From positions 1 to 38,547 of the forward strand of contig NZ_JACJQG010000085.1 in assembly GCF_014696435.1 (NCBI RefSeq): a stretch of 38,547 bases of DNA, written 5' to 3'. This stretch comes from Calothrix anomala FACHB-343. Its GTDB lineage: Bacteria > Cyanobacteriota > Cyanobacteriia > Cyanobacteriales > Nostocaceae. The notes under the pieces were generated by a model, which was not told the origin of the DNA, did not search any database, and worked only from the letters and a program-made list of their open reading frames with translations. A program made the position numbers and the translations under genes. Positions 22,406 through 38,547 of the stretch are shown here, in pieces (position 1 is the first letter of the stretch; each line of letters begins with the position of its first letter).

Positions 22406-25400
22406 TGATAGAACTAGTAGGAACAGATAATACTTTACAAGATAACTCACAACAAAACCTTAACTTAGCTAATAACACATTAACTAACAGTCTCCAACAG
22501 AATGCACAGCTATTACAGAATGACCAGCAAAGGTTAACTCAGAATATAGAAGCATTGAGACAACAGAACCAAGCTAAGTTAGGTTCTGATATGGCAATAG
22601 CTCAAGCAGAAGGTAACCCTAATAATGGGTTTACTGGTTTACTTAGTGGACTAGCTCAAGCTGGTTTACAGTACCTTGACTATAGTAAGAAGAAAGAATT
22701 AAGCGACTATCAAATAAAAGTTGATGAAGCTGTAATACAGAAGAAAGAATTAGCAGCTAAACAAGCAGCTCAACAAGATGCTAAAGAAGCTGCCGTAACT
22801 CAAGCCTTAGGAGATATACACACTAAATATCTAGCTGGTGGTTTCAAGGAAGGAGGTCTACTAGTAGGAGCTATAAATTATAGAAATGAGGCTTTTGATG
22901 TATTAGAAAAAAGTGGGCTTACTCCAGAACAAGTAACTAAATTTAGTAATGTTATCTATCAAAACGTTAAGACTCAACTAGATAGTGATAATACTAGAAT
23001 AACTGAGCAGACTGACAAGATAGAAAAGAATAGAACTAGTACTATTCTCAGTGGTAAGTTAATTGAAATATCTCCTGAAATATCTAAAATAAAAGCTAAC
23101 CCTACAGCAGATATAAACCCTACTCTTGAGCAATTATCTACCAAAATTAATGGGATACTTACTGACCCAAATATAAACTTATCAGACTCCGACAAGTATA
23201 CACTTATTTCTAGTTTATGGGATGAGGTTCAGAAGGCAGTAGGAGAAAACCAGAGTGCCAGAGCGCAAATTGTAGCTCAATTAGAAGGGGCTAGGAAATA
23301 CACTATAGAAGCTTCTCAAATTACTGCTAGGTATAAGTCTAAGTTAGGCACACAAGAAGAAATACCTCGCTCAGTATATGAATATCAATTATTTGAAGCT
23401 AGAAGAAGAAATGGTCTACCAGCTACCCTAAATGACCCTGACCCTTTCCAAGCTCAAAAGGACTATAGAACTGCTCAAGAATTATCACAAGCTTTAGAAC
23501 AAGGTCAGATAGATGAAATTAGTCAGGAAGTTAATAATATAGGAACTACTAATGAACAAGTAGGGGCATTAACTCTACTGTTCATGAATAATAGGTCAGT
23601 ATTAGAGCAGTATAAAAATGACCCAATTCGCTCTAAGATACCCGGTGTAAGAGCAGCAATAAGTCTAGCAGAGGAACATGATAGAGACTTTGATAGGTTA
23701 TCTAAAATACCTGGAGAAAAGGCCGACTTAAATTTAACTATTGCTAAAGTTCAGCAGAATGATACTGAATGGTTAATTGTTCAAAGTAAAAAAGGTGGGG
23801 TATTTGGAGAACTATTTGGAGGTATTAATAAAGAAGATGTGACACAATGGAATGCAGCTAGAAGCAGATATCTAGAAGCAGCAAATGCTAAGTTAAGAAC
23901 CTTAGATGAAGAGGCAGAACGTATTAGGTCTAAATACCAACCTTATGGTTTAGATAAACCTCCAGAAGCACTTAAGAAAGAAGGGCCTAAAAGAATAGAA
24001 GCAGTTCAAACTTATATTAATACGCAAGCACAAGCGGCTCAAAAGAGAGCCCAGGAAAGTAGAAACACTAGGTTAGGAATACAAGGAAATTTTAATGCTG
24101 GTCAGGGTGAAGGGATAAATTCTGACTATGTAATTCAAGATCCCGACACTGGAAGTATAATGTTTAACTCCAGCACACTAACTAATATCAATGCTTTCTT
24201 AACTGTAAGTACTCCATTCTCTAATGATGTTACTGGTGGCTCTGCTAGGTCTAAAATTATCCTTCCATTTCCCGCAGGTACTAAGAATATTGCACTTACT
24301 AGAAGGGACTATAGGGAGAAGCGTCCTACACATATTCATGCAGGTGAAGATATTGTAGTACCTTCTGGTACTCCTATTACTTTCTATATGCAAGGTAGAG
24401 TAGTCCAAAAGAAGTTTGATAAGAATGGGTATGGTTGGTATGTAACCATCAAAGGTGCTGATGGACCTTACCATAGGTTTGCTCACCTCAGCTCTACTAA
24501 TGTTGAGGTTGGTGATGTAGTTGCCCCAGGTAATACTATTGCTTTAAGTGGTAATACAGGACGATCTAGCGGAGCGCATCTGCATTGGGAGATAAGAACC
24601 AATGATGGGTTTAAGGAACAAGGAACTATTGACCCTATTGAGTATATGTCTTCACAGTCTGTAGTTGTATCTAATACTAAAAGACCTACTGGAGATACTA
24701 CTAATGCAACTTATAAGGGAGGCAACCAGCCTAGAGTTCCTAATAATGCAACCCAATTAGCGGGTGGTTTTTATATCCATAATGGAAGACTGGGTAGAAT
24801 TAACCAGCCAGATAGACCCTTAACCGATGCTAATAAAACATTCACCCCCCAGAACCCTGCTAAGACTGGATATCAGTCCAGCATGGCTCCTCAACAAGAT
24901 ATGAGTGATACTCATGGCTATGCTTACTTAGCTAACAATGCTGCTATGAGAGAAGCTATTAATAAAGGTGCTAAAGAGTTAGGTATACCAGGAGCAGTTC
25001 TAGCTGACATTATCAATAATGAAACTAGCTTTAGTCCTAGTAAGATGCAGTCGGCTCATGGTGCTGGTGGTCAATATGTAGGAATTATGGGTTTTGGGCA
25101 GGATGCATTAGATGATATATCTGCTCAATTTAAGATGCCAAGAATTACCATACATCAATTAATGAAGCTTCCCCCAGAGAAGCAAGTACCTTGGATGGTT
25201 AAGTACTTCCAACTCTCTTATGTTAAACCTCATGTTCAGGGTAAAGGTGCAGAGTATTATGCTGCTGCTGTATTAGGTGGATGGTCTTTAGCTAGAGACT
25301 TAGCTAAGGATAAAAATAAGGCACTTAATAGAAGAGATAGTTATGGGACAACCTTAAGGGAATATCTCAATAGAATGGGTAAACCTGTAGGTAGAAAATG

Positions 25401-25530
25401 GCAGTCTAGTGCTGTAAGAATAGAACGTTTAATAGCTACAACTCATACTGGCTACCATGAAGGATGTAAAGTATGTGAACAATTAAGACGTTCTGATAGC
25501 TTTGTCCCCCACATATCTCAGTTTGCATAA
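22405..25530 (+). CDS. Ejection protein with M23 peptidase and lytic transglycosylase domains
   Basis: The 1041-residue protein starts with coiled-coil sequence (1-560), then has an M23/LysM-type metallopeptidase domain (about 635-745) with HAGED (H645/D649), a FAHLSS strand and the HLHWEIR motif (H725/H727): the zinc ligands of LytM-type endopeptidases. A lytic transglycosylase-like domain follows (about 855-985) with IINNETSFSP (E873) and a GIMGFGQDALDD stretch. Together they would cut both peptide cross-links and glycan strands during DNA ejection, the gp16-type role in T7. The ATG at 22405 is chosen over 22381 because AGGAG lies 8 nt upstream and the TAATG junction couples it to the previous gene. 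Confidence 0.85.
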   Translation: MIELVGTDNTLQDNSQQNLNLANNTLTNSLQQNAQLLQNDQQRLTQNIEALRQQNQAKLGSDMAIAQAEGNPNNGFTGLLSGLAQAGLQYLDYSKKKELSDYQIKVDEAVIQKKELAAKQAAQQDAKEAAVTQALGDIHTKYLAGGFKEGGLLVGAINYRNEAFDVLEKSGLTPEQVTKFSNVIYQNVKTQLDSDNTRITEQTDKIEKNRTSTILSGKLIEISPEISKIKANPTADINPTLEQLSTKINGILTDPNINLSDSDKYTLISSLWDEVQKAVGENQSARAQIVAQLEGARKYTIEASQITARYKSKLGTQEEIPRSVYEYQLFEARRRNGLPATLNDPDPFQAQKDYRTAQELSQALEQGQIDEISQEVNNIGTTNEQVGALTLLFMNNRSVLEQYKNDPIRSKIPGVRAAISLAEEHDRDFDRLSKIPGEKADLNLTIAKVQQNDTEWLIVQSKKGGVFGELFGGINKEDVTQWNAARSRYLEAANAKLRTLDEEAERIRSKYQPYGLDKPPEALKKEGPKRIEAVQTYINTQAQAAQKRAQESRNTRLGIQGNFNAGQGEGINSDYVIQDPDTGSIMFNSSTLTNINAFLTVSTPFSNDVTGGSARSKIILPFPAGTKNIALTRRDYREKRPTHIHAGEDIVVPSGTPITFYMQGRVVQKKFDKNGYGWYVTIKGADGPYHRFAHLSSTNVEVGDVVAPGNTIALSGNTGRSSGAHLHWEIRTNDGFKEQGTIDPIEYMSSQSVVVSNTKRPTGDTTNATYKGGNQPRVPNNATQLAGGFYIHNGRLGRINQPDRPLTDANKTFTPQNPAKTGYQSSMAPQQDMSDTHGYAYLANNAAMREAINKGAKELGIPGAVLADIINNETSFSPSKMQSAHGAGGQYVGIMGFGQDALDDISAQFKMPRITIHQLMKLPPEKQVPWMVKYFQLSYVKPHVQGKGAEYYAAAVLGGWSLARDLAKDKNKALNRRDSYGTTLREYLNRMGKPVGRKWQSSAVRIERLIATTHTGYHEGCKVCEQLRRSDSFVPHISQFA

Positions 25531-28500
25531 TGAGTATTATTCAAGACTTTCAAGAAGGGAATAACCCTAAGAATAAAGACAATTTAAAAGTACCTAATAT
25601 AAAGACTCCATTACCTCAATTACAACCTCAGAGTGTGGAACAACAATTAGGTCAAACACCATTAACTAGTACTACTAACATAGTTCCACCCAACAAGCAG
25701 CTACCTGTATTACCTAATAACTCACCTGATAACTATTACAGTGAGACACCTATATCTCAGACTGATAATGTAGATCCTGCCCCCACAGCAGGAGAGAGTA
25801 TCACTACTGAAACTAATACTGAGTCAGATACAACAAGCTCCCCCTCTACCAACAATAGTCAAAGCACTCCCCCAACAACAAGTACCTTTAACCTACCAGG
25901 AGAAATACAGCCCACATCTGCCCCTGTACTATCTGGGGAAACTTATGGGAGTGTTGATAGTGCTGTATCTAAAGACTATAGAGAAGAATTAATTAGACAA
26001 GGAAAGATAAACCAAGCAGTAGTCGATGAGAATGAATTGACTAATAATTATATTCCAACTCTGTATATACCTACCCCTAATTACTCTAGTCAATGGAAAG
26101 CGGGTTATAGCAGAATATCTAACTTTGCTAACTCAGTTTCTACTGCTGCTAATATTCAAGCCCTTCCTCAAACTAGAACTGATCCAAGACAGTATAGACC
26201 TGATAGTACTAAACCATTAGGGGCTAATTCTTCTTACTATAACCAGCCTAATAATACTTATGGGCCTGTAGATACTAGACAATTATTACCAGGAACTAAT
26301 GTAGGGAATAACCCATTTCTATATTTTATTAATTTACTTGGTTCAGTTCCTATGGGTGGTGCTGCTGAAGTTAAAAAGAATATAGATAATGGTTTAAAAA
26401 GTATCCCTTTAATAGGTAATGCTCTATACAACTTAAATAACCTTCCTAACTGGACAGTTAGACAGTTATTTAATTACACTCCTACAAATGTTAATGACCT
26501 TAAACCTAAGAATGCTGCTGATCTAGCAGGGCAGACTGGTAATATTATTAACTCTGCGAGTGGTGGTTTACCTGGGTTAGTAGGAGGAATAGTTAATGCT
26601 CTAGCCATGAAGACGGCAGAGAATGCTATTAAAGGTAATAGACCTAACTATAGTCCTACTGCTAATGGTTTATTAGACCCAGACCTTAAATATAAGGGTA
26701 ATTATTTATTAGATGTATTTAAAGGTGCTGGTTATTCCTTCAGTGACTATGAGTATAATACTCAAGGAGTTAAAAACCCTATAGGTCTTAAGGCAGGTAG
26801 AGACCCTGGTAATGCTGGTATAGAATATACTAACCCATTAACTTACGTAGGCTTACTACTTGATGTAGGTATGCCTGATGCTACTGATGCTATTAAACCA
26901 ATATACTCATTAGCTAAGAAGATGGGTATTATTAAAGCTCCTAGTAAAGTACCTATTAAAGCACCAGAGAAAATAGTACAAGCACCTAAGCCAGAGCCTA
27001 AACCTTATACTCCTATTCCTCCTGAGAGTGCATTAGTTAAAGTTACTCCTCTTAATATTCCTAAGAAAGTTAACCCACCTAGTCCTATTAACCCTACTCT
27101 CATTACTCCATATAGAGGGCCAACTCCTAGTCCTCTTAAGGTTCCTAATATACCTATTAATAAAACATTTAACTTAGGTGAGGCTAAAGCTAATGAGGCA
27201 ATGAGTATACTTAATAGTGCCAGAGCCTCCTTAAATAATAATAAACCCCTAGAAACTGCTCAGAAGTTAAGGGAGTTTGGTAACAGTTATAAAGGTTATG
27301 GACTACAAGCAGATGCTAGAAACATAATAGGTTTAATAAGGAATGGAGAATATAGTAAAGCTAGAGAAGCCCTTAATTCACTTAATGCCAGCATTGACCA
27401 ATATAGTATTAGAACTCCTAAGCTAGCTTCTAACTCTGTAGAAGTAAGTACTAAGTTAAATGAAGTATCTGTTAGCCTGAATAGTAATAATATCAGTGGA
27501 GCATTGACAGCTATTCAGGGTATACCTGAGTCTGGTAAGTTAGCCAGGTTTCTTAAGAAGGGAGATATTCAAGCTTCCAAGGTTGAGTTAAATAAACTAA
27601 CTACACAAATTAATGAAGCTCAAAGAATAACTCAAGAAGCTGATGGGGTAATTACTATTGATGTTACTCCTATAGGCAGCTCAGTTGTTCCTAATAAACC
27701 TACTAAAGTATTACTAATTAATAGTGAAGGAACATTAGTTAAGAGAACAACTGAGTTAGTTCCTGAAGTAGAAGCCATTAAGTTAATAATAGGTAGAGAT
27801 GTAGAAGTACCTGTTATTAAACTAAATGACTTAGGAAGGTTAAAAGAAGTTGTAAATGAATTACCTCCTAGCCCTGTTAAAGGTTTATTACCTGAGAGTA
27901 ATGTGACGACCTCTGCTGTAGAAGGGGTTGTTAATAAAACACCACTACAGAATGTTGTAGATGACTTAGAAACTAAAGCCCTAACTCCAACATCAGTAGA
28001 GACTAAAGCTCCATCTCCAGCACCAGAATTAGTTAGTCCCTCTATACCTCTTAAAGTAGAAAAGGAAGCAGACTTAGTTAGAGAAACATCAGAACTTATT
28101 AGACTACAAAATAAACCTAATATAAGACCTGCCAAGATAGAAGCTCAAAAGGATGTAGTAGAGACACTTAAAAAAGAAGTAGAAACTATTAGTAATACTC
28201 CTGAACCTAAGACTAAAGTTTTACCTGCGATCGCATTAAAAGGAGAATTAACTGTATCTGAGGCAGCTAAATTATTATCTAACAATATACCTGGTACTCA
28301 GATAGGTGAAGAAGTAGTTAAACAAGCTAAGAGAACTAAAGACCAAGTATTAGCTTTAATGAGAGTAGTACCTGCTCCAGATGGTAAACCTATTATCAGT
28401 AGTGCTTATAGAGGAATACTTAAGGATAAGGTAAGAATACAAAGATGGACTGATGTTAAGAAGATATTAGAAGCTAGAGGAATACAAGACCCTGTATATT

Positions 28501-30668
28501 ACAGACTGTTCTCTGAGAATGGGGCACCTATTGATATAGCTGCTTTATCTGATCCTAACTTTAGAATAGTTGTTGATCCCCCTAAGGCTTACAAGGCACA
28601 GAAAGAAGTGGTAGTAGATAACTCTCGCTATGCTTCTGTAATTGAGGGAGGTGATACTGTACTTACTCAAAAGTCTACACAGACAATAAATACATCAGTT
28701 AAACAGTCATTCCTACCTGGGTATGAGAAACCTAGAATTAAAGCTAAAGCTAGTAATAATAAAATAAATTATCTTACTGACAATAAAGCTAAGGGTGAAT
28801 TAAAGAGAGTACTTGTCAGTGAAATAGATAATGCATGGAAAGAGAAGAAGATAGGTGCTGATGGTATTGGTTCTGTTAAAAAGAAATATGAGGAAGCTTT
28901 ACTAAAAATAGCTAATACAGATGAACCAGTAACTATACCTCAAATATCTGTAGGCTCTGATGGTCAAGTTAAATTCCTTAAGGGGGCTAATGAGTTTGCT
29001 GTACTCAGAGATAGTGGTGTAACTGAAATACCAGTTATGATGACTGGTACTGGATATTGGAAAGGTACTGAGTTAAATAAAACCAGAGCTATTAATGAGT
29101 TAAAAAGGGAACAGAAAAGACTACAGAAGGCACTAAATAGTACAGATGATCCAGCTAAGGTAGAAGACATTCTAGCTAGGTTAGAGGAAATAACTGATCA
29201 ACTTAATAACCCTGATGTTAAGAACCCGGCTGTCCTAAAAGAACTACAAAATGAAATAATACCTGATAACCAAATAGGTAAGAGTCAACCAGTAGTAGAA
29301 GCAACTGCTATAAAACTGGAAGCTGAAAGAGACTTAGAGGAAATTAGTGATGTAGTTAATAAACTTGAATATGAGTTAGGTCAGCAAGAATTAGCCCTTA
29401 GTGAGTCTGTAAGAATAATAGAGAATACTGCTGATATAGGTAGAAAGTCTATAAGTGAGGCAGATATAATTTCTCCTCAAGTTATAGAAGATATAGCTAC
29501 TAATTACAACTCTAAAGAAATAGTACTAGAAGCTATTAAGAATATAGAACCTAGAGATAAGAAGGGCCTTAATAATTTAATTAAAAGGGCACAAGAATTA
29601 TTTAAGACTAAAGCAGGTGATGATGCTGCATTACTTGATAACTTTAACGAGGAGTTAGATAGCACTCTTCGTCCACTTAGAGAAGCTATTGACTCACTAA
29701 GAGAAGGAGAAAAGCTAGATGTATTTAAATATGATGAGGTCATTGACTCACTAGCAGACTCTCCTATTAACTCTAAACCTTTCTATCATGGCTCTAGTGT
29801 TGTTAACTGGTCTCCTAACTATGACCCAATTAGTACAGGCAGTAATGCTGAATGGGGTCAAGGTTTATATTTAAGTACTGATCCAGAAAGAGCTAGTCAC
29901 TTTGCTAAAGCAACAGTAGGAGAAAACTTACCTTACATAGAAGACAGAAACTTTGGTACTCCTAAAGTATATGAACTTAAACCTAACTTAGATAATGTAA
30001 TAGATGTTAATGAACCAGCTAGTAAAACAGTTAAGAAGTTATTTGTTAACTCCCTACAGTCTGTAGTTGGTAAAGGAACAGAAGCTTCTAAACGTTTTGT
30101 ACAAATAGTTAAAAGAAATACTGACACTATAACTGTTAGTGAGTTATATGGGGCTATTGAGAGGGCATTAGTTAAGTCTGGTGATAACTCAGAAGCAACA
30201 CTATCTAATGTTAAAAGACAAGTTAATTACTCACTAAGAGAAGCAGGGTTTGATGGTTTAAGTGACGGTAATACTCTTAATGTACTTGATACTTCTAAAG
30301 TACAGGTTATTAATACACAAGCTCTAGATAATGTTGATGAGATAGGATCTGCGATCGCAAGACATAATGCTGACTCAATGACTGCCTTAGATAACCCTAA
30401 TATCCCATCTGCTCAAGTTAACCACATGGAGTCTGGTGTTAGGCTTCAGTCTCAATTAAGAGAAGATACTATTAATAAACTTAAAGAAGCTAGACAGAAG
30501 CAAGTTGAAGCTATTAGTAATTTAGATGAAGCAGATACAGAACTTACTGAATTAGCTCAGAGAGAAAAAGAAGTTAATAGGCTACAGCAATTAGAGAAAG
30601 ACCAGAAAGAAATGGAAAGACTTGATAGAGAACTTAGTAAACCTAACGATAACCCTTGTGAATTCTAA
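25530..30668 (+). CDS. Giant ejection protein with ADP-ribosyltransferase-like domain
   Basis: At 1712 residues this is the largest gene. The N-terminal part (1-200) is Pro/Thr/Ser-rich and disordered. The middle is helical and Pro-linked repeats. Residues about 1415-1600 resemble the ADP-ribosyltransferase-like domains found in phage 'polyvalent' proteins: FYHGSS (H1420), NAEWGQGLYLSTDPERASHFA, then REAGFDGLSDGN...LDTSKVQVINT, which in the family position the NAD ring and close the fold. A polyvalent ART injected with the genome could modify host targets early. It starts within the previous stop (TAATG). The catalytic Glu cannot be assigned confidently by eye. Confidence 0.75.
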   Translation: MSIIQDFQEGNNPKNKDNLKVPNIKTPLPQLQPQSVEQQLGQTPLTSTTNIVPPNKQLPVLPNNSPDNYYSETPISQTDNVDPAPTAGESITTETNTESDTTSSPSTNNSQSTPPTTSTFNLPGEIQPTSAPVLSGETYGSVDSAVSKDYREELIRQGKINQAVVDENELTNNYIPTLYIPTPNYSSQWKAGYSRISNFANSVSTAANIQALPQTRTDPRQYRPDSTKPLGANSSYYNQPNNTYGPVDTRQLLPGTNVGNNPFLYFINLLGSVPMGGAAEVKKNIDNGLKSIPLIGNALYNLNNLPNWTVRQLFNYTPTNVNDLKPKNAADLAGQTGNIINSASGGLPGLVGGIVNALAMKTAENAIKGNRPNYSPTANGLLDPDLKYKGNYLLDVFKGAGYSFSDYEYNTQGVKNPIGLKAGRDPGNAGIEYTNPLTYVGLLLDVGMPDATDAIKPIYSLAKKMGIIKAPSKVPIKAPEKIVQAPKPEPKPYTPIPPESALVKVTPLNIPKKVNPPSPINPTLITPYRGPTPSPLKVPNIPINKTFNLGEAKANEAMSILNSARASLNNNKPLETAQKLREFGNSYKGYGLQADARNIIGLIRNGEYSKAREALNSLNASIDQYSIRTPKLASNSVEVSTKLNEVSVSLNSNNISGALTAIQGIPESGKLARFLKKGDIQASKVELNKLTTQINEAQRITQEADGVITIDVTPIGSSVVPNKPTKVLLINSEGTLVKRTTELVPEVEAIKLIIGRDVEVPVIKLNDLGRLKEVVNELPPSPVKGLLPESNVTTSAVEGVVNKTPLQNVVDDLETKALTPTSVETKAPSPAPELVSPSIPLKVEKEADLVRETSELIRLQNKPNIRPAKIEAQKDVVETLKKEVETISNTPEPKTKVLPAIALKGELTVSEAAKLLSNNIPGTQIGEEVVKQAKRTKDQVLALMRVVPAPDGKPIISSAYRGILKDKVRIQRWTDVKKILEARGIQDPVYYRLFSENGAPIDIAALSDPNFRIVVDPPKAYKAQKEVVVDNSRYASVIEGGDTVLTQKSTQTINTSVKQSFLPGYEKPRIKAKASNNKINYLTDNKAKGELKRVLVSEIDNAWKEKKIGADGIGSVKKKYEEALLKIANTDEPVTIPQISVGSDGQVKFLKGANEFAVLRDSGVTEIPVMMTGTGYWKGTELNKTRAINELKREQKRLQKALNSTDDPAKVEDILARLEEITDQLNNPDVKNPAVLKELQNEIIPDNQIGKSQPVVEATAIKLEAERDLEEISDVVNKLEYELGQQELALSESVRIIENTADIGRKSISEADIISPQVIEDIATNYNSKEIVLEAIKNIEPRDKKGLNNLIKRAQELFKTKAGDDAALLDNFNEELDSTLRPLREAIDSLREGEKLDVFKYDEVIDSLADSPINSKPFYHGSSVVNWSPNYDPISTGSNAEWGQGLYLSTDPERASHFAKATVGENLPYIEDRNFGTPKVYELKPNLDNVIDVNEPASKTVKKLFVNSLQSVVGKGTEASKRFVQIVKRNTDTITVSELYGAIERALVKSGDNSEATLSNVKRQVNYSLREAGFDGLSDGNTLNVLDTSKVQVINTQALDNVDEIGSAIARHNADSMTALDNPNIPSAQVNHMESGVRLQSQLREDTINKLKEARQKQVEAISNLDEADTELTELAQREKEVNRLQQLEKDQKEMERLDRELSKPNDNPCEF

Positions 30669-30678
30669 GGAAGTGTAA

Positions 30679-33600
30679 ATGTCTAATATTTGTAATAACA
30701 ACCCAACAGAACTAGAAAGAGAGAAGTATAACTTTAATACTAAAGAAGGTAGGGAGAAGATAGCTAAAGCTGTAGAGGAAACTCACAGAAGAAATGAGAT
30801 GCTAGCTAGACTTCCTAATAACGCTGAAGAAGCTCAAGCCCTTAAAGAAGCTAGAGAGATAGCTAAGAAGGAAGAGATATGGCAGCAAAGAGTTGGGGAA
30901 GTTGTCTCAATAGATCCAAGCCAGTCCTATAAAATACAGACCTTCTTAGCTGTTGAATTAGGGGCTTTAAGGAAGTTTGATCTATTCAACCCTAGTCTAG
31001 AATATTCTATTGCTGGTGAAGTTAAAAAGACTCTGGTTAATGCTAAGAGAAGCGCTAGAAGTACAGTTAGTGCTGCTACTGCTTATACTTCTTCTGAACG
31101 TATTAGTAAACTAAGGGGTTTTATACACGCTAACTTTGGTGAAAAGTTATCATCAGTAGAAATTAGAGAATTAATGGTAGATGTTCTAGAGATAGGTAAT
31201 ATCCCTAAACGTAATACTCTTTATGGTGATACAGATGGGGTCAAAATATTTAATGAAATTAGGTATGACAGGTTTGTAAATAAATGGAAAGCTAAGGGTT
31301 TAGATGAATGGAGTCTAACTCTCATTAAAGGGCAAGCTAGTAATGTTAGTACTACCTTTACTGAAGCTAACTTAGCTGCTAAAGCTGTTGGTTATGATGT
31401 AGAACAGTTAGCTAACCTGGGTTACTTTCCTCACATTTATAAGAAAGATGCTCTAGAGAAAATAGGTGAAGCTAAGGCAGCAGCAGAAGGAATAAGTCCT
31501 AAAGTAAGTAGTAGAACCAAAGTAGTAAGTGTTGATAAAGCTGAGTTTGGTTCTAAGTTTGAGACTATAAGAAACACTAACCATTATGTACCTGCTCATC
31601 TTGATGTGGTTTCTGAGTTACTAGGTGTACCTAGAGATGATCTAGCTAGGATGATAACCAATGGTGAAGAGTGGAATGAATTACTAAAGAAAGTTCCAGC
31701 AAGTACTTTAGATACTTTAGTAGATAGTGGTGTAATTCAGCAAATACCTATGTCTATGTCTGAGATAATAACTACCTTGAATAAAGAATATAGTTTAGGT
31801 TTTGGGAGTTTAGATGAATTATTTATTACCGACCCTCAACAAGCATTAAATAAGGTTAGCAGAGATATAGAGAAAGCTACACAAAACTGGTCAATGACTC
31901 AGACTGTATTCTCTGGTGAAGCTATTAAACAAGGATGGGCTATTACAGGAGCAGACTTTGCTAACTTAGCAGATAAGAATAAAAAGAACTTTATCAACTT
32001 TGCTGAGGCTTTTAAGGTTGATGAGAAGGATGCAATTAATATACTTAATAAGTTCTTTACTCCTGAACAGCAAGCAGCTATGCAGGGAATGTATGTACAT
32101 AAAACAGTTGCTCGCAACCTAGCTGCTCAATTAGAGATATCCTCCTCTGCCGCTCATTTATCTAATGTTTCTAGATATGTTACTTGGTGGGGTAAATACT
32201 TAAAAGGTAGTGCATTACTAGGTAGTAATATACAATTTATTACTAGAAACTTAATGGATGGAATGATATCTCTAGTGGCTGCAGGAGGTCACCTACATGA
32301 CTTAGTACAAGGGTTTGCTTTTACTGCTGCTAGACGTATGAATAAACTCAGTATAATAGATAATACTAAGGTATTTAGAGTAGTAGGTAATAAGAAATAT
32401 ACTAAGTTAAAGTTTGCTCAAGAAGTATGGGCAAGACTAGATAACAGTATTCCTGGTATAGATAAACATTCTGGTATTAATTGGGGAGCATCTCTCAGTT
32501 ATATAAAGAGATACTCAGATGTATTTAAAGACCCAGTAGTAGCTAAAGAGTTAGGCAGTGACTTTCTTAGAACTCTACAAGAAGTAGCTAAACATCCTGG
32601 TAAGTCAGCTAGTAATACCTTCTTTAAGACAGTGGGTACATTAGCTGAGATATCCAGCTTTGTGGATGAGTGGATGAAATTTACTGTTGCTTTATCTGTT
32701 GCTAAGAGGAATACATGGGGTGGCTTACCTGATGTATTGGAGAATGTAGTTAGTTTAAATTTAAAAAGACCTGATATAAATAGCTTTGAAGAATTAGATA
32801 GATGGATAGGTGAATACTTCCCATCTACTGATATGGCAGGTACTTTGACTAAGAAGGTAGATCAGTATGTTATACCTTTCTTTACCTGGAGAGCTTTTAG
32901 TTTAGGCTCAACTATAAGAATGGCAATGAGAAACCCTCAAAGGTTCTTAGCATATCAAAGACTTAGCTCATTATTTAACCAAGCTAATGGAATAAATGAA
33001 ATACCTGAGGTTGGTTTAAATGAATATGAGAATGATGAGCCAATGGTTCTTAAGAGAAGAGACCCTAATACTGGTCACATCATGGTAATGTTTCCTTCTA
33101 ATTATGACAGAACAAGTGATACTTTATCCTTTGTAGATATAGCGGGTAAACATATTCAAAGGGCATTAGGTTTCTATCCAGGCACTAGCACAGAACAAAG
33201 AAAGCAAGCTATGGGTGAAACTGACTGGACTGATGCTGCTAGAGCTTTCTTTGGTAGTACTTATTATGATGATCTTGTTTATAGTATTACAGGTAGGGAT
33301 AAGTTCACAGGTGAGAAGATAGATAATAATAGACAGAATACCTTCCTAGGCTTGCCTGTACCTAAAGCAGCACAAGGAATAGTAACTACCCTAATACCAT
33401 TACTGGATGTAATTAATAGAACTAACCCAGGAGATGTATTTGGTAGAAGAGAGATAACAGACTCTAAGGGTAATGTAATAGTACCTGGTAAACCTAGCTG
33501 GGCAGGCTATTCAAGAACTGATAAGGATGCTGCTAAATTAGCTTGGGAGAAGGGAACTAATTCAGAAAAAGTAGATATGTTACTAGGTAAAAAATATAGG

Positions 33601-33942
33601 TCTATAGATACTAAGAAGAATGTACAGCAAGCCTTTACCAGTATCATGATAGACCTAAGTGAGATGCAGAAGAGATGGCAGAAGGAGTCATTATACTTAT
33701 CAGCTAATAGAGATAAAATTCCACCTAATGAGTTTAAAGCAAGGGAAGCTAAGTTAAATAAACTATCTGATACCCTAAACCAAACTGCTATGGATGCTAG
33801 AAGGATAGCAGCATACATGATCATGAATGACATTCCACCTTCTCAGGTATATAGAGAACAGCTTAAGCAAAAGATAGTAGAAGGTAATTTACCAATAGTA
33901 GGTCAAGAAGAATTACAGAGAGTAATTCAGGAAGGACAGTAG
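30679..33942 (+). CDS. Large internal virion/ejection protein (C-terminal module)
   Basis: A 1087-residue protein with helix-rich sequence throughout and a conserved-looking C-terminal third (WMKFTVALSVAKRN, FFTWRAFS near residue 734, MRNPQRFLAYQRL, KRRDPNTGHIMVMFPSNYD) similar in style to the large polyvalent-protein-associated regions of phage and mobile-element giant proteins. It is probably ejected with the previous two to build the trans-envelope channel. No enzymatic motif is obvious. SD AAGGAAG lies 6 nt before the ATG. Element R starts 20 bp after its stop. Confidence 0.65.
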   Translation: MSNICNNNPTELEREKYNFNTKEGREKIAKAVEETHRRNEMLARLPNNAEEAQALKEAREIAKKEEIWQQRVGEVVSIDPSQSYKIQTFLAVELGALRKFDLFNPSLEYSIAGEVKKTLVNAKRSARSTVSAATAYTSSERISKLRGFIHANFGEKLSSVEIRELMVDVLEIGNIPKRNTLYGDTDGVKIFNEIRYDRFVNKWKAKGLDEWSLTLIKGQASNVSTTFTEANLAAKAVGYDVEQLANLGYFPHIYKKDALEKIGEAKAAAEGISPKVSSRTKVVSVDKAEFGSKFETIRNTNHYVPAHLDVVSELLGVPRDDLARMITNGEEWNELLKKVPASTLDTLVDSGVIQQIPMSMSEIITTLNKEYSLGFGSLDELFITDPQQALNKVSRDIEKATQNWSMTQTVFSGEAIKQGWAITGADFANLADKNKKNFINFAEAFKVDEKDAINILNKFFTPEQQAAMQGMYVHKTVARNLAAQLEISSSAAHLSNVSRYVTWWGKYLKGSALLGSNIQFITRNLMDGMISLVAAGGHLHDLVQGFAFTAARRMNKLSIIDNTKVFRVVGNKKYTKLKFAQEVWARLDNSIPGIDKHSGINWGASLSYIKRYSDVFKDPVVAKELGSDFLRTLQEVAKHPGKSASNTFFKTVGTLAEISSFVDEWMKFTVALSVAKRNTWGGLPDVLENVVSLNLKRPDINSFEELDRWIGEYFPSTDMAGTLTKKVDQYVIPFFTWRAFSLGSTIRMAMRNPQRFLAYQRLSSLFNQANGINEIPEVGLNEYENDEPMVLKRRDPNTGHIMVMFPSNYDRTSDTLSFVDIAGKHIQRALGFYPGTSTEQRKQAMGETDWTDAARAFFGSTYYDDLVYSITGRDKFTGEKIDNNRQNTFLGLPVPKAAQGIVTTLIPLLDVINRTNPGDVFGRREITDSKGNVIVPGKPSWAGYSRTDKDAAKLAWEKGTNSEKVDMLLGKKYRSIDTKKNVQQAFTSIMIDLSEMQKRWQKESLYLSANRDKIPPNEFKAREAKLNKLSDTLNQTAMDARRIAAYMIMNDIPPSQVYREQLKQKIVEGNLPIVGQEELQRVIQEGQ

Positions 33943-33961
33943 AAGCTGTAATGAAGAATTT

Positions 33962-34198
33962 GGACAGTTTTTGTACACCCTAAAATGACTGAAAGCCTTA
34001 TCAAATAAGAGTTATAGAAATATATAGTACGTACCATGTAGGTATAACTCTCCCTCCCTCCCTTCTCCCTCCCTCTCCCTCTCCCTACCCTCTCCCTCTC
34101 CCTACCCTCTCCCTCTCCCTCTCCCTACCCTCTCCTATCCTGCGTTCTATCCTTATTGTTTAACTTTACATTTAACTTATTGGTTAACTAAGGGGCTA
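33962..34198 (+). repeat. Mirrored noncoding element, right copy (R)
   Basis: On the plus strand this contains GGACAGTTTTTGTACAC (33962-33978), TACGTACCATGTAGGT (34028-34043), a long C/T tract (34048-34140) and a 24-nt block ending in CTAAGGGGCTA (34175-34198). The same blocks in the same order form element L at 3143-3348 on the minus strand. R follows the last gene of the virion cluster and precedes the tail fibres. It lacks the strong hairpin that L has between blocks one and two. Confidence 0.85.
34048..34140 (+). repeat. C/T microsatellite-like tract with G-quadruplex potential on the opposite strand
   Basis: More than 85 nt of CCCTCT/CCCTAC repeats, nearly pure pyrimidine, with single A at 34087, 34104, 34127 and 34137. 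The minus strand therefore carries many GGG runs separated by 3-4 nt, which fits G-quadruplex formation. The equivalent tract in L (3181-3250) is shorter and has fewer GGG runs. Confidence 0.7.
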
Positions 34199-34228
34199 CA
34201 TAAATTTATAGATAAATATTTGATACAT

Positions 34229-35188
34229 ATGAATTCAGAATTATTAATGCAACTGTATGGCACAGATGGTTTTGATAGAAAGCCAGATGCCATAAACTTT
34301 AATTTATTAAATAAGAAGCTATCTGAAGACTTAGGTAAATATGGTGGAGTAGTTACCACTGACACCTCTACAGTCACAGGCAGCTTTAGTGTTATTCAAA
34401 TACTAAATGATACTGTCTTTAGTAGTATTACTGTTGATGGAGTATCAGGTGCTTTAACTGGGTACACAATACCAGCAGGCCAAACTATTTATGGTGATAT
34501 AACTACCTATAAATTAACTAGTGGTAAAGTATTAGCTTATAAGTCAAGTGATACTCCTATTACTACTACACCTACTCTTGCACTTGATGGTTATACAAAT
34601 GTAGTATTTGCTTATTCTCTTACTAAGTTATTCTCTGACTATACAGGCCCTTGTATTAGAGTACGTAGAAGCTCTGATAATGCCCAGCAAGATATCTATT
34701 TTGATAGCAATGGTCAATTAGACATTACATCTCTATTAGACTTTGTAGGCTCATCTAATGGTTTTATAACTGTATACTATGACCAGTCTCCTAACAATAG
34801 GAATGCATCTCAGGTTGATACATCTCTACAACCTCAGATAATTACTTCTGGTAAGTTTGATAGCAGAGGTATTTCATTTACCAATGGCTCTCTATTTATT
34901 GATACTTCCTGGTTAGCTAGTGACTTTACTCTATTGGTTAAGGAAAGAGCTACTAGTATTAGTACAAACAATAACTTTATACAAAACTCTACATCTATAT
35001 CTAATAAGAATATTATTCTTGGGTATGCTGATGCTAATACTATTTCAGCAACTCAGTTTGATAGTACATTAACCTACGATAACCCCTCAGTTAACTTCCC
35101 TGTTAATACTTCAAGGGTATGGGTAGGTACTTGTACAACAAGTACTAAGAAAGTTTATTTAAATGGCAACCAGGTAGCTACAACTTAA
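34229..35188 (+). CDS. Tail fibre with LamG/arabinofuranosidase-B-like domain, cut short
   Basis: The N-terminal 125 residues are Thr/Ser-rich fibre sequence. From about residue 127 to the end (319) the sequence resembles the AbfB-catalytic/LamG-type beta-sandwich: YSLTKLFSDYTGPCIRVRRSS, ITVYYDQSPNNRNASQ, then TRVWVGTCTTSTKKVYLNGNQVATT. The domain stops at NQVATT with two adjacent stop codons; the remaining strands (NYNGSLIIGGSS...SGYIDTVIGF...) occur at the end of the next gene's product. The protein is therefore missing its last strands unless a split partner supplies them. ATG at 34229 is chosen over the in-frame TTG at 34220. A role in host attachment is inferred. Confidence 0.7.
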   Translation: MNSELLMQLYGTDGFDRKPDAINFNLLNKKLSEDLGKYGGVVTTDTSTVTGSFSVIQILNDTVFSSITVDGVSGALTGYTIPAGQTIYGDITTYKLTSGKVLAYKSSDTPITTTPTLALDGYTNVVFAYSLTKLFSDYTGPCIRVRRSSDNAQQDIYFDSNGQLDITSLLDFVGSSNGFITVYYDQSPNNRNASQVDTSLQPQIITSGKFDSRGISFTNGSLFIDTSWLASDFTLLVKERATSISTNNNFIQNSTSISNKNIILGYADANTISATQFDSTLTYDNPSVNFPVNTSRVWVGTCTTSTKKVYLNGNQVATT

Positions 35189-36345
35189 TAATTAATATGA
35201 CAATATTTAGAACTATTGGAAATAAAATATACGCTCCTAACTGGTCAGAGTTTATACCTAGAGGGTTTAACGTAGCTGGTTATAACTTTCCTTACTTTAC
35301 TCAGAAGATAGGCACAGTAACTATTGCAGGTACTCCTAGAACATTTACAGGATATATACCTGATGCTGTTACCTATATCCAAGCTTGGGGAGTTAATACA
35401 GTTAGAGTATGTGCTGACTTATTTAACCTAACCTCAAGAGGTGGTGACTTTAGAGCTGACAAGATGGCAGCAATTAATGAAGCTGTCACAGCTATAACAG
35501 GAGCAGGCATGGTATGTATCCTTGACTATGCTCACTTTATAGATAACTCTGCTGCTGGTAAGTTACTTACAGATACTACATTCCCTACACTACAGCAAGT
35601 AATTGATATGGGAGTAACACTAGCTAACCTATATAAGAATAACCCTTATGTCTGGCTAGAACCTGTTAATGAACCTGGTGGAGTTAACCCATCCAGTGAA
35701 TTAAATGCCTGGACTTATATGTACCAGAAATACATTAAAGCTATTAGGGATACAGGTGCTCAGAATATTATTGTCTGTAATGACTTATTCTTTGGACAAG
35801 GTGGAGCTAGTTATAACGCTAACGTAGTTCCTACTACATCTAGTGGAATATTAAGTAGAGGTCAGAACTTACTATCTTTTAGAGATCCTGATAATAGTAA
35901 TACTCCTGTAATTAAATATGACAATATTCTCTTTGGTATACACGTATATGAAACATGGGGGGAAGACTCTAAACATAACCAAGAAGCTTATAACAATAAA
36001 CTCAGGGACTATGTAACTAGAGTTCATGCTTTAGGTTTACCAATATATTTTGGTGAATTTGGATATGACAATGCAGGCAACTCTATAGAAAGAGCTACCC
36101 AAGCAGCATATGCAGTAAGTAGAGAGAAGAGAGTAGGAGCATTACATTGGAGTTGGTATGGTGATAGTCCTCACTCTAACCAAGGTCTTGTTAACGCTGT
36201 AGTAGTTAGTGGACAGACTATGTATGGTGGATATCTAATAGATAGACTTGATGGAACTAAACCTACTAACTTAAGAACTACCACTAGACATAATGGTAAT
36301 GACTTCTGGGAATGGAATAAAGAAGTAGCTGCTTATAATTACAAC
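35174..36345 (+). repeat. Imperfect direct repeats flanking the GH5 insertion
   Basis: The left junction (GTAGCTACAACTTAATAATT at 35174) and right junction (GTAGCTGCTTATAATTAC at 36325) are degenerate copies of the same sequence. The left encodes VATT then stop; the right encodes VAAYNY and leads into the missing LamG strands. They bracket about 1.15 kb containing the GH5 gene, as expected if that block was inserted by recombination at this point. Confidence 0.6.
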
Positions 36346-36558
36346 GGTAGTTTAATTATTGGTGGATCAAGTCCTAATTACTCAGGATATATAGATACTG
36401 TTATAGGTTTTGATACTGCTTTATCTGCTGACTCAATATCTACCCTATCTTCCTCAGTTAACAGTACTAATATTCCATCTCAGTCAGTTGGTTTACTAAT
36501 GGAAGATGGTGACTTCTTCCTAATGGAAGATAACAGTTCATTTTTACAAGAAGAATAA
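35197..36558 (+). CDS. GH5-family glycoside hydrolase fused to the C-terminal strands of a LamG domain
   Basis: Residues about 1-345 have the GH5 (clan A, TIM-barrel) signatures: PRGFNVAG, WGVNTVRV, the acid/base motif LEPVNEP (E159), HVYETWG, the nucleophile motif IYFGEFGYD (E287) and ALHWSWYGD. GH5 enzymes cleave beta-1,4-linked cellulose, mannan or related glycans, here presumably host sheath or exopolysaccharide. Residues 379-425 (YNYNGSLIIGGSS...SGYIDTVIGFDTALSADSI) are the final strands of a LamG domain and match the break point in the upstream gene. The tail carries LLMEDGDFFLMEDNSS. The gene starts 8 bp after the previous stop, in another frame, with no SD. Virion-borne depolymerase activity is inference. 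Confidence 0.8.
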   Translation: MTIFRTIGNKIYAPNWSEFIPRGFNVAGYNFPYFTQKIGTVTIAGTPRTFTGYIPDAVTYIQAWGVNTVRVCADLFNLTSRGGDFRADKMAAINEAVTAITGAGMVCILDYAHFIDNSAAGKLLTDTTFPTLQQVIDMGVTLANLYKNNPYVWLEPVNEPGGVNPSSELNAWTYMYQKYIKAIRDTGAQNIIVCNDLFFGQGGASYNANVVPTTSSGILSRGQNLLSFRDPDNSNTPVIKYDNILFGIHVYETWGEDSKHNQEAYNNKLRDYVTRVHALGLPIYFGEFGYDNAGNSIERATQAAYAVSREKRVGALHWSWYGDSPHSNQGLVNAVVVSGQTMYGGYLIDRLDGTKPTNLRTTTRHNGNDFWEWNKEVAAYNYNGSLIIGGSSPNYSGYIDTVIGFDTALSADSISTLSSSVNSTNIPSQSVGLLMEDGDFFLMEDNSSFLQEE

Positions 36559-36580
36559 ACTTATATAAATTAAAAATAAT

Positions 36581-37678
36581 ATGGCCTCACAGAAAATAAC
36601 AGATAGTACCTCACTCTTAGGTATTCAATTAGATAGAGCTAATGATGTTCTACCTATTGTAGATGTAAGTGCAGGTACTTCAGGTAATAAAAAAATAACA
36701 CCTAACGATCTATTCACAGGTACTCCTGCTACTAGCTCTAGAGCTGGCTCAATGACTGCTGTAGATAAAGCTAAGTTAGATGCAATTAATACTGATCTAA
36801 TAGTTAACACTAACTCCAGTCAAATTATCACAGGTCAGAAGACACTAACCTCCTTTAACTTCTCTAGAAGTGCTAATAAGTTAATTGCTCCTGCTGCTAA
36901 CACTACTCTTGTTTATGGTAGAGACTTTGCCACTAGAGTACGTCCTGTAATGCAAGCTCCTGATGGCAGAGAATGGTTAATACAAGCTGGAATGGGTAGA
37001 AACCATGTATGTATTTTATATCCATCTAATGGCAGTACTGCTCCTGATACACATGGAATGTATGTTACTAACCAAGGTACTATTTCTCACCCCAGCCCAA
37101 CAGATGACCTAGTACCCTACATGACTAACTATGCTACTGCTGCTACTGGTGAAGCTAGAGCAGGGTCTAGTGCTAATGCTCGTATTTATTGTAGAGGAAG
37201 TAATGCCAACGGGTTTGGTGGTTTCTCTTACTTTGCTCGCTTATACTTCCCTGATGCTTCTTATACAAATTGCAGAATACTTATTGGTCTCAATGGTTTA
37301 GATGCTATATGGAGTGATGGTAGTGCTACAGCAACAAGTGATATAGCTGGTAACTATGCTGCATTCCAATACAGTACTTCTAGAGGTGATACTACTTGGA
37401 TGTTTGTAACTAAGGATGGTACTACTCAGAATGTTGTGCCTATAGTTGGTGCTACATTTACTCCTCAAAAGATGTATGACTTCTACATTGAATGTCCTAG
37501 AGCAGGTACTTCAATTGGATACAGAATAGATAACCTAACAGATGGTTTAAGTTATTCAGGATCTACTTCTAATAACCTTCCTACTGCTAATGCTTATATG
37601 AACAATGGTTTTCAGTTAAGAACAACTGACAACGTAGCTAGAAATATAAGAATGTACCGTATGTATACAGAGCAGTAA
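36581..37678 (+). CDS. Tail fibre protein with beta-sandwich C-terminus
   Basis: A 365-residue protein opening with KITDSTSLLGIQLDRANDVLPI and SSRAGSMTAVDKAKLDAIN, a linker motif seen in many phage fibres before the shaft, followed by a beta-rich C-terminal domain (WLIQAGMGRNHVCILYPS, SYFARLYFPD, NIRMYRMYTEQ at the end). It looks like a fibre or receptor-binding component in the same operon as the GH5 protein. No enzyme motif is visible. A hairpin (37681-37702) follows the stop. Confidence 0.7.
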   Translation: MASQKITDSTSLLGIQLDRANDVLPIVDVSAGTSGNKKITPNDLFTGTPATSSRAGSMTAVDKAKLDAINTDLIVNTNSSQIITGQKTLTSFNFSRSANKLIAPAANTTLVYGRDFATRVRPVMQAPDGREWLIQAGMGRNHVCILYPSNGSTAPDTHGMYVTNQGTISHPSPTDDLVPYMTNYATAATGEARAGSSANARIYCRGSNANGFGGFSYFARLYFPDASYTNCRILIGLNGLDAIWSDGSATATSDIAGNYAAFQYSTSRGDTTWMFVTKDGTTQNVVPIVGATFTPQKMYDFYIECPRAGTSIGYRIDNLTDGLSYSGSTSNNLPTANAYMNNGFQLRTTDNVARNIRMYRMYTEQ

Positions 37679-37680
37679 TA

Positions 37681-37702
37681 AAGGGGAGAATATTCTCCCC
37701 TT
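37681..37702. terminator. Perfect 22-bp palindrome between fibre genes
   Basis: A fully self-complementary sequence centred at 37691/37692 with outer CCCC/GGGG and inner GAATATTC. It has no T-tract, so it may be a pause/processing hairpin, or a dyad-symmetric protein site, rather than a terminator. Confidence 0.5.
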
Positions 37703-37728
37703 ACTAACCCTTAATATATTAATTTAAT

Positions 37729-38484
37729 ATGTCAACAGCATTTGTAACAGTGACTAGGTCAGGTACTAATTTTGTAATAGATGTCACTGCAGCTAATTTA
37801 TTAACTGACTTATCTATAAAAGACTTTGTAGTATTTCATGATGGGGTTAGTGTCAGCAATAGTTCCTATACTAAAACTACTCCCACTACTCTTACATATA
37901 CAGGTACATCTATACCTAGTACAGTAATTCAAGTAAGAAGAAAGACACCTAATAGTGTTGTTCAAACAGTTAGCTATGGTTCTAAGTTCTCTAGTTCTCT
38001 ATGGAACTCTGAGATGGATAGAAGTATTAGACGCTTTGAGGAATATGATCTTAATATTAGTCCTCAATATAGTGATATAGAAGCATTAGGTAATTTAACT
38101 GTAAGAGGTAACTCAACTGTAGAAGGTAATAGTTATATTAAGTTCTGGAAGAAAGTTAGTATACCTACTAATGTTCTTAATGACTTTATTAATTTTGTTA
38201 TACCTTTACATCAAAGATATACCTCTACTGCTCTTGAGCAAAATTACTGTATTGGTAATTTATTTCTTAGTAGAGGTGCTTCTGTTGCTTATAACAGAAG
38301 TGTTGTATTACATATTAATACTGCTTCAGCTTATACATCAAATACAGGGGGCTTAATAGTAACTCAAGGGCCTGAGCTTCCTTATACTTTTGACCTAGCA
38401 ACCTTTACTTATCAAGGCACTGAATGGATAGGTATTAGATCAGAAATGTTGAATCTCGATACAAAACTTTACATATTTGGTTAG
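37729..38484 (+). CDS. T7 gp17-type tail fibre N-terminal (adaptor) protein
   Basis: A 251-residue protein beginning FVTVTRSGTNFVIDVTAANL, with KDFVVFHDGVSVSNSSY and IQVRRKTPNSVVQTVSYGS, the pattern of the T7 tail-fibre N-terminal domain (Phage_T7_tail) that anchors fibres to the nozzle. A C-terminal beta-rich part (130-251) would extend as a short shaft. It lies last in the fibre cluster, after the enzymatic and sandwich-domain proteins; in most T7-like phages the anchoring domain is at the N-terminus of the main fibre, so the fibre here seems to be assembled from several polypeptides. Only 63 bp follow before the window ends, without a recognisable terminator. Confidence 0.75.
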   Translation: MSTAFVTVTRSGTNFVIDVTAANLLTDLSIKDFVVFHDGVSVSNSSYTKTTPTTLTYTGTSIPSTVIQVRRKTPNSVVQTVSYGSKFSSSLWNSEMDRSIRRFEEYDLNISPQYSDIEALGNLTVRGNSTVEGNSYIKFWKKVSIPTNVLNDFINFVIPLHQRYTSTALEQNYCIGNLFLSRGASVAYNRSVVLHINTASAYTSNTGGLIVTQGPELPYTFDLATFTYQGTEWIGIRSEMLNLDTKLYIFG

Positions 38485-38547
38485 AGTAATTCTAAAAAGC
38501 CTAAAATAGTCAACATAACATCATCTCCTCAAGCCAATGAACATAAC

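What the first reader, a model, noticed from the sequence alone, without database searches (positions are those of the whole stretch)
34229..36558. GH5 hydrolase gene inserted into a LamG domain of a tail fibre, leaving the domain split between two proteins
The fibre gene at 34229 stops in the middle of a LamG/AbfB-type domain (NQVATT, then two stop codons). The strands needed to finish that domain (YNYNGSLIIGGSS...SGYIDTVIGF) are at the C-terminus of the next gene, right after a complete GH5 domain. The left junction GTAGCTACAACTTAATAATT and the right junction GTAGCTGCTTATAATTAC are degenerate copies of each other, and removing the DNA between them restores one continuous LamG frame (...NQVA-AYNYNGS...). 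That points to an insertion of about 1.15 kb that brought in a hydrolase while keeping both halves of the host domain, possibly as a noncovalently reassembled split domain.
Basis: partly seen in the sequence, partly recalled or inferred. Interest (0 to 1): 0.88.

Follow-up and report, generated by a model that had tools for sequence, protein, structure and literature searches.

The report
Phage fibre domain shared between genes
In a small group of viruses of filamentous cyanobacteria, one sugar-binding type of fold seems to be encoded in two pieces, most of it at the end of one structural gene and the rest at the end of the neighbouring enzyme gene, which suggests that the enzyme is held on the virus by completing its partner's fold.

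Summary
ORF1 (34229-35188) ends inside a PF09206 (AbfB-type, concanavalin-like) domain: it fills positions 2-207 of a 263-position profile of 83 intact phage homologues. The C-terminus of the GH5 gene (35197-36558) matches positions 218-258. That second match is modest: 4 of 2000 shuffles are as good, and not every one of the five tails shows it.

New: this is no one-off insertion. The arrangement occurs in 5 of 5 distinct loci found, apparently in phages of two tail types, with ORF1 identities of 45-63% among four of them. A GH5 gene with a tail follows 6-9 nt after each ORF1, and tandem stops end ORF1 in 4 of 5. None of 82 closed frames of fetched relatives stops there, and a viral-contig scan for the tail returns only the same five contigs.

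The claimed junction copies are chance (433 of 2495 random pairs as good). No empty-site relative was found, so 'insertion' stays inferred.

Most likely the two proteins reassemble one domain and so tether the hydrolase to the virion.

The parts
34229..35188 (+). ORF1: structural protein; N-terminal part plus an incomplete AbfB-type/LamG-like domain
   Evidence: ORF; PF09206 E 1.6e-7; phrog_10356 virion structural protein E 2.6e-13
34313..34543 (+). ORF1 residues 29-105: homologous to the C-terminal part of a separate upstream gene (ORF0) in the other four split loci
   Evidence: blastp 37-40%, E 2e-16 to 3e-13 in 4 of 4
34592..35185 (+). ORF1 residues 122-319: first part of the split domain (positions 2-207 of 263)
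   Evidence: hmmsearch with the intact-family profile, 147 bits
35186..35191 (+). two tandem stop codons ending ORF1; tandem stops also in 3 of the 4 other loci
35197..36558 (+). GH5 protein, 453 aa; its ATG lies 8 nt after the first stop, in another reading frame
   Evidence: PF00150 E 1.5e-33; five-locus alignment A5
35362..36162 (+). GH5 (cellulase) domain as matched by Pfam, residues 56-322; NEP at residues 158-160 and GEFG at 286-289
   Evidence: barrel predicted with low to moderate confidence
36349..36465 (+). GH5 residues 385-423: tail matching the missing last part of the split domain (positions 218-258 of 263)
   Evidence: modest
36487..36555 (+). C-terminal repeats of the type LLMEDGDFFLMEDNS (LREDG-like repeats in the other loci)
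36581..37678 (+). ORF3, next gene of the shared cassette (51% to the Calothrix locus)
   Evidence: phrog_13925 E 1.7e-18
37729..38484 (+). ORF4, tail fibre protein with the N-terminal part of phrog_22682; a neighbour, not part of the split
   Evidence: phrog_22682 residues 1-109, E 2.8e-47

Best explanation
A concanavalin-like (AbfB-type) domain of a phage structural protein is permanently encoded in two pieces. ORF1 makes about four fifths of it; the neighbouring GH5 hydrolase carries the last fifth (the stretches around LIIGGS and GYIDTVIGF and a short helix) as a C-terminal tail. The two proteins are translated one after the other from adjacent genes, and the tail completes the ORF1 domain without a covalent bond, so that the reassembled domain is the socket that holds the enzyme on the virion, where it would cut host surface polysaccharide. 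Shown: the incomplete domain, the recurrence of the arrangement in five loci, the co-occurrence of the two pieces. Supported modestly: that the tail is the missing piece. Inferred: physical complementation, presence of both in the virion, substrate, and the role in adsorption.
For: Four ORF1s end at profile positions 205-207 of 263, the fifth at 206; the window and L002 tails match 218-258 and 218-260. hhalign of four tails puts them on 219-258, P 0.018. Window tail: 4 of 2000 shuffles as good; summed over five tails, none of 2000 summed shuffles is as good (28.6 against at most 27.5). The best hit of the five-tail profile falls in the C-terminal register in 26 of 74 intact domains that gave a hit (83 given), reached by 1 of 200 column shuffles. 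Same arrangement in 5 of 5 distinct loci; gap 6-9 nt, tandem stops in 4 of 5. 82 of 82 closed frames of fetched relatives run past the split point, as do 8 of 8 further ones. A viral-contig scan for the tail returns only the same five contigs. Closest pair (L017, L111): ORF1 dN 0.11, dS 1.07; tail dN 0.22, dS saturated. The tail has no confident fold in the GH5 chain alone. Precedent: split phage enzymes that reassemble (PMC2988022, passages).
Against: The tail match is modest. In one search the L017 and L008 tails gave no match to the end of the profile, the L002 tail scored as well on positions 104-152, and hhalign gave a probability of only 2.6. In one search L008 is like its shuffles (884 of 2000 as good; 163 of 316 GH5 windows as good). 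In one search blastp put only the best hits of the window tail at the C-termini (E 0.04-0.06); the other tails scattered. In one search the mean score itself is ordinary (70 of 200 shuffles as high). The tails have T where intact members have a nearly invariant E. For window against L002 the tail has dN 0.73 and dS 0.85, close to no constraint. Low pLDDT of the tail may reflect only the five-row alignment. No complex was modelled. Two of the five loci lie in one genome and few hosts are involved, so they are not five origins.
Confidence: 0.55

Rival explanations
1. ORF1 is a shortened but self-sufficient domain, and the tail on GH5 is a leftover or a separate docking peptide that binds something else in the virion.
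For: Single-tail matches to the intact family are weak; the family's conserved E is absent from the tails; the tail of window against L002 shows little constraint.
Against: The tail keeps invariant residues in five loci, sits beside an ORF1 that lacks just that part in every contig that the scan returned, and 82 of 82 closed frames keep the part.
Confidence: 0.24
2. The tail is not a piece of that domain at all; the resemblance is chance and GH5 simply has its own C-terminal extension, perhaps another way to attach to the virion.
For: L008 tail scores like its shuffles; no tail has a Pfam hit up to E 10 other than one unrelated hit of the L008 tail; mean score in the positional test is ordinary.
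Against: Positional test: 1 of 200 column shuffles; window tail: 4 of 2000; the register goes on where ORF1 stops.
Confidence: 0.15
3. The two frames are joined after all, by stop readthrough, frameshifting or splicing, to give one chain with GH5 inside the domain.
For: ORF1 and GH5 share the reading frame in 4 of 5 loci (L008, L002, L017, L111), from the gaps seen.
Against: Tandem stops in 4 of 5 and a different frame in the window; no Rfam match, introns included, in 33500-38547 at E up to 1; each GH5 frame has its own ATG.
Confidence: 0.05
4. Sequencing or assembly error broke one gene.
For: None found.
Against: Same arrangement in separately assembled genomes and contigs.
Confidence: 0.01

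Closest known systems
Split phage genes that reassemble, e.g. NrdA of Aeromonas phage Aeh1 split by the homing endonuclease gene mobE (PMC2988022, passages read)
   Same: A coding region is divided by another gene and the two polypeptides form, or are thought to form, the original fold without a covalent bond.
   Different: There the intruder is a mobile nuclease gene lying between the pieces. Here it is a hydrolase whose frame runs on into the second piece, so reassembly would also tether the enzyme; no mobile element was seen.
Conserved-peptide docking of second receptor-binding proteins in Klebsiella phages of the KP32 and KP34 groups (PMC6872550, 12 passages read)
   Same: A second, enzyme-bearing tail protein is attached to the first through a short conserved segment.
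   Different: There the peptide is N-terminal and is modelled to dock on a T4gp10-like domain. Here the segment is C-terminal and resembles the missing end of the partner's own domain.
AbfB / PF09206 domain (solved structures such as 1wd3 and 6sxr) and its many intact phage versions
   Same: ORF1 and the intact phage domains share the family motif; the profile of A8 hits 1wd3 at E 3.3e-8, over profile positions 7-75 only.
   Different: The intact members hold the fold in one chain; here it is in two.
Donor-strand complementation of pili and engineered split domains such as SpyTag (recalled, no call)
   Same: A strand from another chain completes a beta sandwich.
   Different: Not homologous; here both parts would derive from one natural phage domain and carry an enzyme.

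Membership tests
PF09206 ArabFuran-catal (AbfB-type domain) | Profile match above the curated cut-off | tested here: met
   ORF1 31.1 bits against cut-off 25
PF09206 ArabFuran-catal (AbfB-type domain) | Whole domain in one chain | tested here: not met
   ORF1 covers positions 2-207 of 263 of the intact phage profile
PF09206 ArabFuran-catal (AbfB-type domain) | Arabinofuranosidase activity and catalytic residues | not tested
   Catalytic residues were not mapped; most likely a binding module (inference)
Glycoside hydrolase family 5 | Family profile and the two catalytic glutamates | tested here: met
   PF00150 E 1.5e-33; NEP at 154-158 and GEFG at 283-288 in 5 of 5; that these hold the catalytic glutamates is recalled
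Glycoside hydrolase family 5 | Activity on a polysaccharide | not testable with these tools
   Best solved-structure hits of the GH5 profile are beta-mannanases, best E 1.9e-9, with endoglucanases below
Genes-in-pieces (split gene with functional reassembly) | Two adjacent genes whose products align to consecutive parts of one intact homologue | tested here: met
   First piece clear, second modest and not for every tail
Genes-in-pieces (split gene with functional reassembly) | Products bind and function together | not testable with these tools
   No two-chain prediction available; single-chain model of GH5 only
Genes-in-pieces (split gene with functional reassembly) | Mobile nuclease or intron at the split | tested here: not met
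   Only GH5 lies there; no Rfam match; no nuclease family hit for ORF1, GH5 or ORF3 nor for ORF0, ORF1, GH5 or ORF3 of L017 in PHROGs
Conserved-peptide docking of receptor-binding proteins | T4gp10-like docking domain with N-terminal peptide on the second protein | tested here: not met
   No such hit for ORF1 or GH5 in Pfam, PHROGs or NCBIfam at the thresholds used; T4gp10 itself was not compared

The most novel reading that the evidence does not exclude
Phages use a naturally split lectin-like domain as a plug and socket: the half-domain on the virion is the socket and the C-terminal tail of a separately made hydrolase is the plug, an inherited way of mounting an enzyme on a virion by completing its partner's fold, moved as a cassette between phages with different tail types.
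Probability: 0.47. Interest if true: 0.8.

Novelty: new variant of a known kind. Interest (0 to 1): 0.6.

Why it matters
The split phage genes described in the paper passages that I saw look like damage that the protein tolerates. Here the split is kept across five diverged loci, with an enzyme on the second piece each time, which turns it into a possible assembly principle: a virion part recruits an enzyme by sharing one fold. If shown, it would be a natural, non-covalent counterpart to engineered split-domain tags and a directly testable way in which phages of filamentous cyanobacteria mount a hydrolase.

Tried and rejected
Insertion scar at the junctions: rejected as chance. Intron or other RNA element: no Rfam match in 33500-38547 up to E 1. 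Assembly error: made very unlikely by recurrence. Close uninterrupted relative of the cassette (an 'empty site'): sought with ORF0 and ORF3 in viral contigs (three loci each, on contigs already known or since found to be split), ORF3 in 243 genomes of the order, GH5 in 59, 386, 9 and 218 genomes and the half-domain in 386. These genome sets overlap and were samples. They gave the window, G000:C98 and G004, besides a distant GH5 in G038 that matches the catalytic part only; a distant GH5 of the own genome (L009) likewise matches the catalytic part only. The genome-contig scan gave one relative, Calothrix membranacea FACHB-236, also split. Named phages: half-domain relatives in 19 of 50,697 records, each under 60% identity; GH5 in 1 record per query, weak; plasmids 1 of 72,556, weak.

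Rows dropped: the 83-domain set is the 75 frames with 180-229 residues after the motif, plus 8 from named phages and first-round loci. Left out were 6 copies running off a contig, 7 copies followed by more sequence, Bolt007 (241 residues after the motif), L005 (motif variant) and Eileen (no motif match). The 80 loci are the best of 579 by match to a whole-domain query, so they lean towards intact domains. YN00 gave a value for only one comparison; NG86 is used. A first script took a wrong sequence as the window and a second stopped with an error; both were redone.

Papers: eight searches showed listings of 15, 15, 10, 8, 10, 0, 10 and 0 papers, in some cases out of many more; no listed title or abstract start describes a fibre domain split between two genes. 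Passages only were seen of PMC2988022 and PMC6872550; PMC6293099 was searched for three terms with no occurrence. Most subscription papers are not in that library.

Full report
What is there. The window is a whole 38.5 kb contig (G000:C129) of a 9.24 Mb genome. A genome of the same genus (G004) carries a stretch identical to Calothrix membranacea FACHB-236 contig66, a nostocalean cyanobacterium, so the host of the window is of that kind (inference). The contig carries terminase, head-tail adaptor, scaffold, major head and tail genes and looks like a podovirus-type phage or prophage (inference). Its right end holds ORF1 (34229-35188), GH5 (35197-36558), ORF3 (36581-37678) and a tail fibre gene (37729-38484). 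ORF1 itself matches a PHROG of virion structural proteins filed under head and packaging, so 'fibre' is a label from its neighbours.

The first piece. ORF1 residues 124-199 match PF09206. I fetched 80 viral loci with the domain, the best of 579 confirmed relatives. They hold 88 motif copies; 6 run off a contig. Of the 82 with a stop, 75 have 180-229 residues after the motif and 7 more than that. The five ORF1s have 136 or 137. A profile of 83 intact domains has 263 positions; ORF1 of the window matches 2-207 with 147 bits, the ORF1s of L002, L017 and L008 end at 206, 206 and 205 and that of L111 at 206. The domain is cut at the same place each time, a few residues after YLNG or YLDG. The A8 profile also hits solved AbfB structures, e.g. 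1wd3 at E 3.3e-8, in the N-terminal part; all 64 members of A8 hit PF09206 and 7 hit Laminin_G_3, which places the fold in the concanavalin-like group.

The second piece. After the GH5 barrel comes a tail, SLIIGGSSPNYSGYIDTVIGFDTALSADSISTLSSSVN in the window. In the profile it falls on 218-258, just after the point where ORF1 ends; the L002 tail falls on 218-260 but scores as well on 104-152; the L017 and L008 tails gave no match there. hhalign of four tails gives 219-258 with P 0.018 and a probability of 2.6. blastp puts the best three hits of the window tail at C-termini of intact domains (E 0.04-0.06), while the other tails scatter. Against the last 58 profile positions, 4 of 2000 shuffles of the window tail are as good, 46 for L002, 126 for L111, 152 for L017 and 884 for L008; the sum over five (28.6) exceeds the best of 2000 summed shuffles (27.5). 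Of 316 windows of the GH5 catalytic parts, 0 score as high as the window, L002 or L111 tail, 3 as high as L017 and 163 as high as L008. In a positional test with a register set by me (22-45 residues from the end), the five-tail profile has its best hit there in 26 of 74 intact domains with a hit (83 given); 1 of 200 column shuffles reaches that, mean 6.7, but the mean score is ordinary (70 of 200 as high). So the homology is likely but rests on modest numbers. Against it too: intact members have a nearly invariant E where the tails have T.

It is not one event in one phage. The same pair occurs in L008 (G000:C98, second copy in the same genome; identical proteins in IMGVR 2909559933), L002 (IMGVR 2767802765), L017 (Calothrix FACHB-236; L011 lies within it; the proteins listed for IMGVR 2920031645 look the same) and L111 (IMGVR 2775506876). 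ORF1 identities are 45-63%, GH5 catalytic parts 57-83% and tails 38-58% among window, L008, L002 and L017; L111 ORF1 is 81% to L017. The gap from stop to start is 8, 9, 9, 6 and 6 nt for window, L008, L002, L017 and L111; two stops in a row end ORF1 in all but L002; the frame is shared except in the window. By NG86, dN is 0.11-0.53 for ORF1 with dS 1.07-3.47, and 0.22-0.73 for the tail (42 codons) with dS 0.85 to saturated. ORF1 is clearly conserved. The tail is conserved in most pairs; window against L002 (0.73 and 0.85) is not far from neutral.

Mutual presence. A scan of viral contigs with the five ORF1 half-domains returned 13 loci: the five split contigs and 8 others, in all of which the frame runs past the split point. 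A scan with the tails returned five loci, the same five contigs. A crude motif scan found no GH5-like frame in the other 88 loci looked at. Neither piece was seen without the other in these scans, which find fairly close relatives only.

The cassette moves. Neighbours in L017 are a tail protein, a gene with tail fibre matches, a tail collar protein and an integrase, and L002 has baseplate-like genes (by eye), so these look like contractile-tail prophages (inference); the window does not. ORF3 is shared too (51% window to L017). In the window, ORF1 begins with a part homologous to the C-terminus of a separate upstream gene (ORF0) of the other four loci (37-40%, E 2e-16 to 3e-13). A gene fusion at that border suggests that ORF0 and ORF1 products work together (inference).

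Junctions. The same test gives 285 of 1500 for the window and 110 to 1174 of 1500 for the other four loci. There is no evidence of a target-site duplication.

Structure. AlphaFold2 on GH5 with five rows: mean pLDDT 57 for the best of five models (38-46 for the others), pTM 0.65; a barrel-like run of strands and helices to about residue 318 with some weak stretches; residues 319-409 and 418-453 under 50; a helix at 411-423. This agrees with a tail that needs a partner, and equally with a shallow alignment. The planned model of an intact homologue and the fold search could not be run.

How it most likely works. ORF1, attached to the virion through its N-terminal part, presents an open sandwich. 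GH5, made right after it, inserts its tail and closes the fold. The enzyme is thereby mounted on the virion, where it would thin the polysaccharide sheath of the filament. The anatomy supports the first step; binding, location and substrate are inference.

Noticed in passing
L128, frame from about 3917 (464 aa): An AbfB-type domain with a stretch of about 180 residues inserted in frame between ISNFIGTQ and RVRTWYDQSGN, i.e. an insertion within one chain at another place of the same fold.
   Followed up: no
34313-34543: The N-terminal part of ORF1 corresponds to a separate gene (ORF0) in the other four split loci; here it is fused.
   Followed up: partly
36487-36555, and C-termini of GH5 in L002, L008, L017, L111: Short repeats of the type LLREDGxYLLREDxS, two copies by pattern in the window and four to seven elsewhere; the GH5 proteins of window and L017 have no PHROGs match.
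   Followed up: no
34040-34145: A pyrimidine-rich tract of CTCCCT-like repeats just upstream of ORF1, between two structural genes.
   Followed up: no
25530-30668, residues 1408-1710: The 1712-residue protein ends in a part similar to phage families called ParB-like nuclease and RNA polymerase ADP-ribosylase; perhaps an injected enzyme.
   Followed up: no
22381-25530, residues about 499-1048: A 1049-residue protein in the structural gene region with a peptidase/endolysin-type domain.
   Followed up: no
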